Assembly (NCBI RefSeq): GCF_024138125.1
Contig: NZ_CP099993.1
Location: forward strand, 434,001 to 498,000
Reading direction: 5' to 3'
DNA: 64,000 nucleotides
Origin: Halorussus salilacus
GTDB taxonomy: Archaea; Halobacteriota; Halobacteria; Halobacteriales; Haladaptataceae
Below, piece after piece: positions 8,056-44,560 of the stretch. The translations under genes and the position numbers were made by a program. Numbering within the stretch: the stretch's first letter is position 1; each line of letters opens with the position of its first letter. The notes under the pieces were generated by a model. That model was given only the letters and a program-made list of their open reading frames with translations. It was not told where the DNA came from and did not search any database.

Positions 8056-9636
8056 CTACCGTCCGGCCCCGCCTCGACGCCGCGCCAGCGCGAGTGCAAC
8101 GATGACCGCCACGAGCGCCGCGGAACCGGTGAATCCGGGCTGTGACGCCTCGTTGCTGTCGTCGGCCTCTGCGGTCTCGTCGAAAGCCGTCGTCTCGGTG
8201 GGATTGGTCTCGGTGTCGGGTTCGGAGGTTGCGGTCTCGGTGTCGGGCTCTGAAGTTGCGGTCTCGGTGTCGGGTGACGACGTAGCTGAAGTCTTCGTCT
8301 GGGCCTCTTCCGTCGTTTCGGTCGCGGTCGTGGTCTCGGTGGTCGTGGTCGCAGTCGTAGTCGCGGTGGTCGTGGTCGCAGTCGTAGTCGCGGTGGTCGT
8401 AGTCTCGGTCGTGGTCTCGGTGGTCGTGGTCGCAGTCGTAGTCGCGGTGGTCGTGGTCTCGGTCGTCGTGGTCTCGGTCGTCGTGGTCGCAGTCGTCGTC
8501 TCGGTGGTCGTCGTCTCGGTGGTCGTCGTGGTCGGTGCGCCCTCGGTGAAGGATATCGACCAGTCCTCGGATTCGGTCCCGACGCTGTCGCTTTCGAGTT
8601 CGACGTAGAGGAAGCCGGTCTCATCGGCGGTCGCGCTCTCGGTAATCCTCTCCTGCGATTCGCCGCTCAAGGTGGTCGCCCCGCCCGGCCAGTAGATGTT
8701 CCCGACGATGTCATGGCCCTGCGCTTTCTCCAGCGCCGTGGTCACCGTGTCGCCCTTCTGGACCGGCAATCGCATGTAGTCGGTGTCGTCCCAGCTACTT
8801 ATCGCGCCCGAGTGAGTTCCCGTCCCCACCTCGGTGGCGTCCTCCTCTTTGTCGGGCCACTCGTCAACGTCCTTCGTCCGGTCCAGCGTGACCGACCAGT
8901 CCTCGGACTCGGTCTCGACGCTGTCGCTTTCGAGTTCGACGTAGAAGTAGCCTTCCTCCTCGATGGTCGCCTTCTCGGTGTCTTCGGACTTGTCCTCGCC
9001 GCTCAGAGAGGTCGCCCCGCCCGGCCAGTAGATGGATCCGGTGATGTCGTGGCCCTGTGCTTTCTCCAGCGTCGCGGTCACCGTGTCGTCCTCGTCGACG
9101 GGCATCCGCATGTAATCGGTGTCGTCCCAGCTGTTGACCGACCCCTCGTGAGTTCCCGGCCCGACTTCGATTGCGTTCTCCTCGTGGTTGGGCCACTCGT
9201 CTGCGCCCTCGTTCCGGTCGAGCGTCACCGACCAGTCCTCGGGGAAGTCTTCGTCGGACTCGCTGTGGAGTTCGACGTAAAAGTATCCGTCCTCATCGAC
9301 GGTCGCCTTCTCGGTGTCCTCGGTCTTCGCTTCGCCCTCCAGTGAAGTCGCGCCGCCCGGCCAGTAGATGCTTCCGATGACGTCGTCGCCTTGGGCTTTC
9401 TCCAAGGTCGCAGTCACCGTGTCGCCCTTCTCGACGGGCATCTTGATGTAGTCGGTGTCGTCGGAGCTATCGATGGACCCCTCGTGAGTTCCGGGGCCGA
9501 CCTCCGCCGCGTCTTCTTCGTCGTCGGGCCACTCGTCGTCGGCGGTCGCGATGCCGACGCCGAACGGAATCGCCCCGACGAGGAGCATTCCGACGACGGC
9601 CAGCACCAGAACGCTCGATTTGAATCCTCGTTCCAT
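8056..9636 (-). CDS. PGF-CTERM surface protein with three PPC-like repeats and a Thr-rich stalk
   Basis: 526-residue exported protein. A Sec signal peptide covers about residues 1-32. Three tandem repeats of 112 residues follow (about 34-145, 146-257, 258-366). Each starts DEWP and contains TDYxxxPVxxxDTVTxxLEKAQG, resembling bacterial pre-peptidase C-terminal (PPC) domains. A low-complexity stalk made almost only of Thr, Glu and Ala follows (about 367-450), then TATSEPDTE repeats. The C-terminus carries a PGF motif, a hydrophobic helix and an Arg-rich tail (SQPGFTGSAALVAVIVALAL, then RRRGG), a recognised archaeosortase A sorting signal. It is probably cleaved and lipid-anchored, with O-glycosylated Thr. 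The partner or ligand is unknown. Confidence 0.88.
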   Translation of the reverse strand: MERGFKSSVLVLAVVGMLLVGAIPFGVGIATADDEWPDDEEDAAEVGPGTHEGSIDSSDDTDYIKMPVEKGDTVTATLEKAQGDDVIGSIYWPGGATSLEGEAKTEDTEKATVDEDGYFYVELHSESDEDFPEDWSVTLDRNEGADEWPNHEENAIEVGPGTHEGSVNSWDDTDYMRMPVDEDDTVTATLEKAQGHDITGSIYWPGGATSLSGEDKSEDTEKATIEEEGYFYVELESDSVETESEDWSVTLDRTKDVDEWPDKEEDATEVGTGTHSGAISSWDDTDYMRLPVQKGDTVTTALEKAQGHDIVGNIYWPGGATTLSGESQERITESATADETGFLYVELESDSVGTESEDWSISFTEGAPTTTTTETTTTETTTATTTTETTTTETTTTATTTATTTTETTTETTTTATTTATTTTATTTATTTTETTTATETTEEAQTKTSATSSPDTETATSEPDTETATSEPDTETNPTETTAFDETAEADDSNEASQPGFTGSAALVAVIVALALARRRGGAGR

Positions 9637-20113: not shown

Positions 20114-20160
20114 TTCTGACTTTCCGTTGATTGAGAACGGTTCTTTGTAGAAATCCCTCG

Positions 20161-20554
20161 CTCGCTACGAACCGTCTCACGAGACGGAACGACGAACACC
20201 CAGAAAGCCCCCGCCCGCTCGCTACGAACCGTCTGCGAAGACCCCACGACGAACACCCAGAAAGCCCCGCCCGCTCGCTACGAATCGTCTCACGAGACGG
20301 AACGACGAACACCCAGAAAGCCCCGCCCGCTCGCTACGAACCGTCTGCGAAGACCCCACGACGAACACCCAGAAAGCCCCGCCCGCTCGCTACGAATCGT
20401 CTCACGAGACGGAACGACGAACACCCAGAAAGCCCCGCCCGCTCGCTACGAATCGTCTCACGAGACGGAACGACGAACACCCAGAAAGCCCCACCCGCTC
20501 GCTACGAACCGTCTGCGAAGACCCCACGACGAACACCCAGAAAGCCCCCGCCCG
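20161..20554 (+). repeat. Tandem array of seven 56-57 bp units upstream of family A copy 1
   Basis: Units begin at 20161, 20218, 20274, 20330, 20386, 20442 and 20498. Each contains CTCGCTACGAA, a small inverted repeat, ACGACGAACACCCA and GAAAGCCCCGCCCG. Two variants occur in the order B A B A B B A. Variant B carries CGTCTCACGAGACG and variant A carries CGTCTGCGAAGAC, so the GTCT/AGAC stem is kept while the loop differs. The last part of each unit, GAAAGCCCCGCCCGCTCGC, equals the left arm of the hairpin that follows at 20540. Units are contiguous, without unique spacers, so this is not a CRISPR. Confidence 0.9.
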
Positions 20555-20655
20555 CTCGCGGTCGCTGTGCGGGATATCCGGGCCTCTCAGCAACGCCCGG
20601 CCCGGATAGTTGCCCGCACAGACGACCACGTAAACGCGAGCGGGCGGCCCCTTTC
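20540..20655 (+). repeat. Family A structured element, copy 1 (possible ncRNA)
   Basis: One long interrupted hairpin. GAAAG (20540-20544) pairs with CTTTC (20651-20655), and CCGCCCGCTCGCG (20548-20560) with CGCGAGCGGGCGG (20635-20647), separated by a CCC/CCC internal loop. Inside these, GTCG pairs with CGAC, TGTGCGGG (20566-20573) with CCCGCACA (20613-20620), and ATCCGGGCC (20576-20584) with GGCCCGGAT (20599-20607). A conserved AGTCCCACCCC follows. Three other copies in the window keep the fold with different stem sequences (28095, 31910, 44324). Confidence 0.85.
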
Positions 20656-20669
20656 AGTCCCACCCCGTG

Positions 20670-20816
20670 GTCTGCGTCACCGGGCGATTCACGGTGGTCT
20701 GCGTCACCGAGCGATTCCCGCCGGATGTGTCACCGAGCGATTCCCGCCGGATGTGTCACCGAGCGATTCCCGCCGGATGCGTCACCGGGCGATTCACGGT
20801 GGTCTGCGTCACCGAG
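20670..20816 (+). repeat. Six 26-27 bp direct repeats after family A copy 1
   Basis: GTCACCGAGCGATTCCCGCC-type units start at 20676, 20703, 20729, 20755, 20781 and 20808. The outer copies read GTCACCGGGCGATTCACGG. The word CCGGGCG(C/A)TTC(G/A)CGGTGG also follows family A copy 2 (28227-28250), so this tail belongs to the same composite element. There is no open reading frame of note. Confidence 0.85.
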
Positions 20817-20878
20817 CGCGATTCCGCCAACCGCGACTGTCTCGGTGCGGGCGGAAAAACGAAGCGACCGACGCGATT

Positions 20879-27974: not shown

Positions 27975-28053
27975 GAAAGCCCCCGCCCGCTCGCTACGAA
28001 CCGTCTGCGAAGACTCCACGACGAACGCCCCGAAAGCCCCCACCCGCTCGCTC
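27975..28053 (+). repeat. Two upstream copies of the family A left arm
   Basis: GAAAGCCCCCGCCCGCTCGC at 27975-27994 and GAAAGCCCCCACCCGCTCGC at 28034-28053 repeat the left arm of the hairpin at 28095. The first is followed by TACGAACCGTCTGCGAAGAC, the type A unit of the array at 20161. This is a shortened version of that array. Confidence 0.75.
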
Positions 28054-28094: not shown

Positions 28095-28201
28095 GGAAGC
28101 CCCCGCCCGCTCGCGGTCGCTGGCCGACATATCCGCGCAAACCGCGCGCGGATAGGGGTCGGCCAGACGACCAAGCGATGCGCGAGCGGGCGGCCCCTTT
28201 C
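28095..28201 (+). repeat. Family A structured element, copy 2 (possible ncRNA)
   Basis: The same fold as copy 1 with different stem sequence. GGAAG (28095-28099) pairs with CTTTC (28197-28201) through one G-T wobble, CCGCCCGCTCGCG (28103-28115) with its complement at 28181-28193, and the CCC/CCC internal loop is kept. TGGCCGAC (28121-28128) pairs with GTCGGCCA (28158-28165), and ATCCGCGC (28131-28138) with GCGCGGAT (28146-28153). It lies between bolA and a small hypothetical gene, both on the minus strand. Together with its flanks it fills the gap 27884-28270. Confidence 0.85.
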
Positions 28202-28270
28202 AGTCCCACCCCGTCGAACGGTCCACCGGGCGCTTCGCGGTGGACTGCGGAAATCCGAGAAATTGCGTCG

Positions 28271-29919: not shown

Positions 29920-30046
29920 TGCGTGGGAGTAGGGGGCGTGAGGGTTTGAAAGCTACTGGTCTCGGGTGAAGCAGGATTTCTAAGTATCGTAACGGACGGA
30001 GAACGGCCCTTTCGCGTGACGCCGAGCTGTCGATTCGAGCAGGAGC

Positions 30047-30215
30047 TAGCGACTCCCGGTACCGATGAGGACCGCACAGCACCGCAACCGCGACCGCAGG
30101 CCACACCCTCCCCAGCCGACTCCTTCGTTCGCGCCTTCGGCGCTTCACTCAGTCATCCCTCGCGCGCTGAAGGCGCGGCCTCAAACAGCGAGGCCGCGCC
30201 AGCGCGCGCCGGTCG
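30047..30215 (-). repeat. Family B dispersed element, copy 3
   Basis: Read on the minus strand it starts with a GCGCGCT hairpin that carries the inner stem GGCGCGGCCTC/GAGGCCGCGCC. It continues with GCGCGCGAGGGATGA and a GCGCCGAAGGCGC hairpin, then the GGCTGGGGAGGG core and GCGGT repeats. It ends with CGGTACCGGGAGTCGCTAGC (one base different from the others). It occupies most of the gene-free gap 29920-30245 between fen and the Rieske oxidoreductase gene. Confidence 0.75.
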
Positions 30216-31909: not shown

Positions 31910-32038
31910 GAAAGCCCCGGCACGCTCGCGGTCGCTCTGCGGGATATTCGCGCCTCACCGCAACGCACCGCATCGGCGCGAATAGTCGCCCGCAGAGACG
32001 ACCACGGGCCGAAGGCCCGCGAGCGCGCCGCCCCTTTC
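31910..32038 (+). repeat. Family A structured element, copy 3 (possible ncRNA)
   Basis: GAAAG (31910-31914) pairs with CTTTC (32034-32038), and CGGCACGCTCGCG (31918-31930) with CGCGAGCGCGCCG (32018-32030) with one mismatch. The CCC/CCC internal loop is conserved. TCTGCGGG (31936-31943) pairs with CCCGCAGA (31989-31996), and ATTCGCGCC (31946-31954) with GGCGCGAAT (31975-31983). An additional small GGGCC-GAA-GGCCC hairpin is inserted at about 32005-32017. It lies between two minus-strand genes in the gap 31794-32135. Confidence 0.85.
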
Positions 32039-32040
32039 AT

Positions 32041-32063
32041 TCCCGCGAGCGAAGCGAGTGGGA
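32041..32063. repeat. Short hairpin with GCGAGCGAAGCGAGT core
   Basis: TCCC and GGGA flank GCGAGCGAAGCGAGT immediately after family A copy 3, replacing its usual CCCACCCC tail. Same core as at 28650. Confidence 0.65.
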
Positions 32064-44244: not shown

Positions 44245-44323
44245 GGGGGATTCCCGGCAATATCGCGCCCAACTACGCATCCGCCAGTATCGCCCGGCAA
44301 CACAGTCCACCGAGGGCGGGACT

Positions 44324-44433
44324 GAAAGGGGCCGCCCGCTCGCGCACCGCTTGGTCGTCTCCGCGGGCAACTATTCGGCGCGCGGTTTGCGCCGAATATC
44401 CCGCGGAGCGACCGCGAGCGGGCGGGGGCTTTC
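44324..44433 (-). repeat. Family A structured element, copy 4, between btuC and btuD
   Basis: Read on the minus strand, GAAAG pairs with CTTTC, and CCGCCCGCTCGCG with its complement (plus-strand positions 44332-44344 and 44413-44425). The GGG/GGG (CCC/CCC) internal loop is conserved. TCCGCGGG pairs with CCCGCGGA, and ATTCGGCGC with GCGCCGAAT. A further left-arm copy (GCGAGCGGGCGGGGGCTTTC on plus, 44471-44490) lies at the btuD side. These fill the gap 44245-44560. Confidence 0.85.
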
Positions 44434-44560
44434 TGGCCGTTCGTCGTCCAATCTGTTCGAACGTTTCGTGGCGAGCGGGCGGGGGCTTTCGGGGACGAAA
44501 CCGCCGTAGTCCCCTTGACACCGACCGATCAAAACACGACTCTGAGGAGGTCGACAGACG

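What the first reader, a model, noticed from the sequence alone, without database searches (positions are those of the whole stretch)
20540..20655. Family A: a structured element with compensatory stem changes, four copies in 64 kb
Copies at 20540-20655, 28095-28201, 31910-32038 and 44324-44433 (minus) share one fold. The stems are GAAAG/CTTTC, a C3/C3 internal loop, a 13-bp stem on CCGCCCGCTCGCG, GTCG/CGAC, an 8-bp stem and a terminal 8-9 bp stem. The 8-bp stem is TGTGCGGG/CCCGCACA, TGGCCGAC/GTCGGCCA, TCTGCGGG/CCCGCAGA and TCCGCGGG/CCCGCGGA. The terminal stem is ATCCGGGCC, ATCCGCGC, ATTCGCGCC and ATTCGGCGC, each with its complement. Unpaired words (the C3/C3 loop, AGACGACCA, ATAG and the TCCC tail) are conserved. 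Both-sided changes with constant loops are what selection on a folded RNA or a structure-recognising protein would leave. I do not recognise it as a named RNA family.
Basis: seen in the sequence. Interest (0 to 1): 0.85.

Follow-up and report, generated by a model that had tools for sequence, protein, structure and literature searches.

The report
Repeated DNA hairpins in salt-loving archaea

Summary
The four window copies belong to a family of ~82 strong plus ~20 partial copies in this genome, abundant in Halorussus, patchy in Haladaptatus, and also in Halosimplex. In 131 copies, 97-99% of stem cells pair, with 24-27 of 41 pairs changed on both sides. No Rfam family matches.
The RNA reading is not supported on the given strand. 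Wobble pairs are nearly absent (0.25% against 5.7% in this genome's tRNAs) and A.C outnumbers G.U. Copies lie between genes.
At the copy-4 site, 14 of 16 other Halorussus keep an element in the same place and orientation; the two without it are the two that have lost the family. Inner sequences follow other copies, not orthologues.
Best reading: a strand-asymmetric hairpin-forming DNA repeat, REP/ERIC-like in kind, maintained by copying between copies and between arms, probably recognised by an unidentified protein. It lacks the GTAG tag and RAYT transposase of REPs, an RT and any TnpB correlation.

The parts
20540..20661 (+). copy 1 (c1): complete hairpin element
   Evidence: 141 bits, best in genome
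28095..28207 (+). copy 2 (c2): complete element
31910..32044 (+). copy 3 (c3): complete element
44318..44433 (-). copy 4 (c4): complete element; site shared by 14 of 16 other Halorussus genomes examined
20159..20539 (+). tandem array (period 56) of upstream half-units: left arm GAAAGCCCC(C)GCCCGCTCGC + 37-nt locus-specific spacer
20673..20818 (+). downstream tandem array, 26-bp unit TGCGTCACCGAGCGATTCCCGCCGGA; single or repeated versions follow many other copies
27975..27994 (+). left-arm half-unit upstream of c2
   Evidence: sequence
28032..28051 (+). second left-arm half-unit upstream of c2 (43-nt spacer to the element)
   Evidence: sequence
44471..44490 (-). left-arm half-unit upstream of c4 (37-nt spacer)
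   Evidence: sequence

Best explanation
A family of interspersed, intergenic, strand-asymmetric hairpin DNA repeats of Halorussus and some other haloarchaea. Shown: about 120 bp; outer stem GAAAG-[CCC]-12 bp, inner stem GGTCG, a fast-changing 8-9 bp stem, ATAT/ATAG stem and variable tip; unpaired bases conserved; fixed place and orientation at some sites over the genus; interiors replaced between copies; near-complete loss in two separate species. Inferred: one strand extrudes as a hairpin when the duplex opens (replication, transcription or repair); most likely the bottom strand, because mismatches there are G.T and its side loop is C-GNA-G, a loop that is very stable in DNA. An unidentified protein recognises the stem with its unpaired bases, so imperfections are kept. 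Stem arms stay complementary because one arm templates the repair of the other, and copies are homogenised by conversion or by renewed copying into the same sites. Replication pausing at the hairpin would explain the tandem half-units upstream and the 25-bp units downstream. In kind it works like REP/ERIC repeats: probably spread by a factor supplied in trans, now mostly resident.
For: Copy number and specificity; taxon range. Coupled stem changes. DNA-type rather than RNA-type coupling: G.U 0.25% vs 5.7% in tRNA; A.C on the top strand exceeds G.U, 28 vs 11 events. Imperfections kept: left CCC in essentially all of 131 copies, right CCC in 123 of 131, the unpaired A in every copy scored; Halosimplex has a different loop sequence that is also unpaired (by eye). 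44 of 45 own copies and all 64 scored copies of other genomes lie outside predicted genes, and start codons facing the element are at least 63 bp away. Same site and orientation: c4 in 14 of 16 other genomes, c2 in 5 genomes including this one, c1 in 5, c3 in 2 plus a degenerate one. Interiors resemble copies elsewhere more than orthologues except in sister species G004/G014. Mass loss: G008 (0 copies) groups with G000/G001/G003, G013 (1 copy) with G009/G007.
Against: No protein partner was found, and no binding, extrusion or transposition was measured. Conserved position could be neutral persistence or a shared hot spot. Low wobble could partly reflect high G+C and recent exchange. Bottom-strand preference rests on 39 mismatch events. 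The TNCG form of the side loop (61 of 64) is also the classic stable RNA tetraloop on the top strand.
Confidence: 0.6

Rival explanations
1. Purely selfish non-autonomous transposable repeat (MITE or REPIN-like) with no host role, moved by an unidentified transposase; its features are only what the transposase needs.
For: High, patchy copy number (0 to about 90 within one genus); nested forms and exchanged interiors; sites lacking it in relatives; two mass losses.
Against: No Y1 transposase in six copy-rich genomes; of the 96 right ends in this genome, those not explained by the model were inspected and are small elements or solo ends, with no gene-bearing parent; c4 kept in the same place and orientation in 14 of 16 other genomes.
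Confidence: 0.35
2. RNA element of the bottom strand: a hairpin in the untranslated part of mRNAs of the neighbouring genes, acting on termination or stability.
For: Tandem neighbours mostly run with the bottom strand (21 vs 6, 18 vs 7); G.T tolerated on the bottom strand (28 vs 11 events); bottom strand folds more stably with RNA parameters.
Against: Many copies lie between divergent genes (13 of 44, 12 of 50), where no bottom-strand gene runs into them; even on that strand wobble is about 0.7% of cells against 5.7% in tRNA; orientation bias is weak outside this genome (30 vs 20 for the left neighbour, p 0.2).
Confidence: 0.2
3. Free-standing structured RNA of the top strand.
For: Covariation, conserved unpaired bases, UNCG-type side loops.
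Against: G.U nearly absent and A.C more frequent; mostly antisense to neighbours in tandem contexts; no Rfam match.
Confidence: 0.08
4. Coupled stem changes are a mutational by-product only: template switching between arms keeps the palindrome, with no selection.
For: Almost all changes are Watson-Crick on both sides with few intermediates.
Against: It should also erase the CCC/CCC loop and bulges, yet these persist in nearly all copies, and an unpaired loop persists in another family.
Confidence: 0.15

Closest known systems
REP/REPIN repeats with RAYT (TnpA-REP)
   Same: Short palindromic, intergenic, high-copy, stems with subfamily-specific paired changes (PMC3733652)
   Different: REPs are 20-40 bp with a GTAG or CGTC tag; this is ~120 bp with a CCC/CCC loop and CTTTCA(G/T)TCC tail; no Y1/RAYT gene in six copy-rich genomes
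ERIC/IRU (127-bp enterobacterial imperfect palindrome; recalled, not compared here)
   Same: Size, long imperfect palindrome, intergenic, no known transposase, can carry internal inserts
   Different: Found only in haloarchaea here; tandem half-units upstream and a fixed asymmetric loop pattern
Haloarchaeal MITEs
   Same: Inverted ends, many copies, non-coding
   Different: No gene-bearing parent with these ends found in the genome; site duplications not established
Integron attC sites (recalled)
   Same: Works-like only: strand-asymmetric ssDNA hairpin with unpaired bases and variable tip
   Different: No cassette array context; IntI not searched; sequence unrelated as far as recalled
STAXI motif (PMC2864571)
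   Same: Covarying motif for which the authors considered single-stranded DNA instead of RNA
   Different: STAXI is a repeated pseudoknot; this is one long hairpin

Membership tests
REP/REPIN | 20-40 bp palindrome tagged GTAG or CGTC | tested here: not met
   about 120 bp, ends GAAAGCCC / CCCCTTTCA(G/T)TCC; definition from PMC3733652
REP/REPIN | RAYT (Y1, PF01797) in trans | tested here: not met
   none in G001, G002, G003, G009, G010, G016, which carry 30 to 45 or more copies
REP/REPIN | many intergenic copies | tested here: met
MITE | terminal inverted repeats | tested here: met
   17 of 20 outer bases inverted, with the conserved CCC/CCC mismatch
MITE | autonomous parent with the same ends | tested here: not met
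   right ends not explained by the model were inspected: small elements or solo ends only, own genome
MITE | target-site duplication and clean empty sites | tested here: inconclusive
   sites lacking the element exist, but flanks are too diverged to align
Structured RNA (Rfam sense) | match to a described family | tested here: not met
Structured RNA (Rfam sense) | covarying stems | tested here: met
   with the caveat of exchanged interiors
Structured RNA (Rfam sense) | wobble tolerance on the transcribed strand | tested here: not met
Structured RNA (Rfam sense) | transcription | not testable with these tools
   no RNA-seq
TnpB/IS605 guide RNA derivative | presence follows TnpB | tested here: not met
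   TnpB in all 18 genomes, 7 matches each in the two without the repeat
Retron or DGR RNA | reverse transcriptase | tested here: not met
   no PF00078 in 18 genomes
ERIC/IRU | ERIC consensus sequence | not tested
   recalled only
attC | integron integrase and cassette context | not tested
   no search for IntI was made

The most novel reading that the evidence does not exclude
A genome-wide set of strand-specific single-stranded-DNA hairpins read by a dedicated haloarchaeal protein, whose loss leads to loss of all copies: a resident hairpin system that keeps place and orientation while exchanging interiors, with a 3-base phased upstream zone as part of the recognised complex.
Probability: 0.25. 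Interest if true: 0.8.

Novelty: new variant of a known kind. Interest (0 to 1): 0.6.

Why it matters
It is a large palindromic repeat family in archaea that I did not find described in the searches made. It is a clean test case for telling DNA-level from RNA-level covariation: strong both-sided changes that a covariance search would call RNA, yet with a wobble pattern unlike RNA. Closely related species with and without the whole family make a search for the partner protein by gene content directly possible.

Tried and rejected
Known RNA family: Rfam at gathering and permissive thresholds, nothing. IS200/RAYT: PF01797 missing from copy-rich genomes. TnpB: no correlation. Reverse transcriptase: none. 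Virus or phage origin: no match in phages or viral contigs. Gene-bearing parent element: right ends lacking a model match were inspected, none found. Coding reading of the upstream 3-base periodicity: third-position G+C is too low for this genome and array periods are often not multiples of three; left unexplained. A short-gene tree from the c4 flanks was unresolved and was replaced by rpoB. Literature searches found no description; the library holds open-licence papers only.

Full report
The four copies are real. They lie at 20540-20661, 28095-28207 and 31910-32044 on the plus strand and 44318-44433 on the minus strand, and each folds into one long imperfect hairpin much more stable than shuffled sequence. 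Anatomy from the 5' side: GAAAG; CCC unpaired; a 12-bp stem ending GCTCGC; GGTCG; an 8-9 bp stem that changes freely; an unpaired A; TAT + variable tip + ATA; an unpaired G(T/G)(T/G)G; the return stem; a bulged base in AG(A)CGACC; a small side hairpin; the outer stem; CCC unpaired; CTTTC; then A(G/T)TCCCACC.

The family is much larger. A loose core pattern gives 31 hits in the window's own 3.6-Mb genome against 1 in the reversed control. A covariance model from 25 copies gives about 82 strong and some 20 weak or partial copies. The right-end word GSCCCTTTCANTCC occurs 96 times against 0 reversed. Relatives: many copies in most of the genus, some in another genus of the family, weak matches elsewhere in the order. 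By name the copies are in Halorussus and Haladaptatus plasmids and, in a scan of 84,980 species, in Halorussus, Halosimplex and one Halobacteriales MAG and nowhere else; that pattern is strict, so the range is a lower bound. None in phage or viral collections.

Structure. In 25 complete copies of this genome 21 of 41 pairs have both-sided changes and 97.8% of cells pair, far above shuffles and slid controls. In 66 own and 65 foreign copies the figures are 98.9% and 97.1%, 24 and 27 pairs; these alignments were fitted to the model. Unpaired positions are as conserved as paired ones: left CCC in essentially all 131, right CCC in 123 of 131, the A opposite the 3-4-base loop in every scored copy. 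In Halosimplex the outer loop has another sequence and is also unpaired (read by eye).

RNA or DNA. tRNAs of this genome have 5.7% G.U and no A.C in 741 pairs. In the 34 pairs outside the tip and outside the junction pair, the 131 copies have 11 G.U or U.G and 31 A.C or C.A among about 4,400 cells; grouped into events, 11 against 28, p 0.009. Helices kept as RNA on this strand should show the opposite. The junction pair (G with C or T) was left out because about a third of copies carry T there as a subfamily trait. The bottom strand, where A.C reads as G.T, folds slightly better with either parameter set. The side loop is C-TNC-G in 61 of 64 cases (T, G, A or C at N) against 3 inverted (loci overlap, so some copies may be counted twice): on the top strand a UNCG RNA tetraloop, on the bottom strand a C-GNA-G loop, known (own knowledge) as exceptionally stable in DNA. 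This feature alone cannot decide.

Context. 44 of 45 own copies and all 64 scored copies from named genomes lie outside predicted genes (simple gene caller of my own, trained on the window). Distances to facing start codons are never under 63 bp, while gene ends can be within 28-48 bp. In tandem contexts the element reads against both genes 21 vs 6 (p 0.006) and 18 vs 7 (p 0.04). All four window copies do so.

History. At the c4 site the element is present in the same place and orientation in 14 of 16 other Halorussus genomes with a match; it is missing only in G008 and G013, which have 0 and 1 copies in all. At c2 it is shared by G000, G002, G010, G012 and G015; at c1 by G000, G002, G011, G012 and G015; at c3 by G000 and G002, with a reduced hairpin lacking the core in G010. 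An rpoB-region tree puts G008 with G000, G001 and G003, and G013 with G009 and G007, all copy-rich (the first grouping has 91/94 support, the second 98/98), so the family was lost nearly completely at least twice. Counts above 45 were capped. Interiors do not follow the site: nearest neighbours are usually copies at other sites, often in the same genome (63 of 147 against 30 expected); only the sister pair G004/G014 clearly keeps orthologues together. Copies L009 and L012 have a left arm GCTCGC with a right arm GCGACC, as a partial exchange would leave.

Modules. The outer frame also exists almost empty (24 nt), as a simple hairpin, with another core (family B), or with inserted double hairpins. 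Upstream, left arms are repeated in tandem with a locus-specific spacer; downstream ~25-bp units are repeated, also locus by locus. I read these as local duplications from replication pausing at the hairpin; this is inference.

Unexplained. Purines recur every third base at -8, -11 ... -35 before the element (0.73 against 0.44 and 0.56; 0.79 against 0.47 and 0.55 in a second, partly overlapping set), and spacers from the last half-unit are 34, 37, 40, 43, 46 or 55 in 31 of 35 copies, all 1 modulo 3.

Partner. IS200/RAYT, TnpB and reverse transcriptase were tested by presence across 18 genomes and do not fit.

Verdict. Observation confirmed and extended. The top-strand RNA interpretation is not supported; the structure-recognising-protein alternative stays open. 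Best filed as a new variant of REP/ERIC-like hairpin repeats without the defining features of REPs, with mechanism inferred and partner unknown.

Noticed in passing
copies in L005-L202, 35 bases before the element: Purine every third base in phase with the element, and spacers to the last upstream half-unit are 1 modulo 3 in 31 of 35 copies.
   Followed up: partly
L110, L114, L116, L121, L103: Same outer frame holding a different core (CCGGGACTCGTTGCGC...GCGGTGCTTACGTCGTCCGGG), a second hairpin family.
   Followed up: no
L013, L015, L106, L109, L112, L120, L300: Double-hairpin inserts of ~50 bp (such as CGGGAGAC..GTCTCCCGAGGTCAC..GTGAC) nested inside the elements.
   Followed up: partly
window 30041-30212: Another dispersed repeat (ACCGCACAGCACCGC...CCACACCCTCCCCAGCCGACT...CATCCCTCGCGCG), also following some elements, with copies elsewhere in G000 and G010.
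   Followed up: no
G000 contig C1, 1,521,940-1,890,153: About 370 kb with no copy, although some ten would be expected and tRNA genes lie there.
   Followed up: no
L130, L308, L062, upstream of elements: Long GTC/GTT/GCG triplet arrays directly before elements.
   Followed up: no
L315: Two complete elements in opposite orientation in one intergenic region of G015.
   Followed up: no
window 8557-9537: 336-bp tandem repeat, 2.9 copies, largely inside a predicted minus-strand gene.
   Followed up: no
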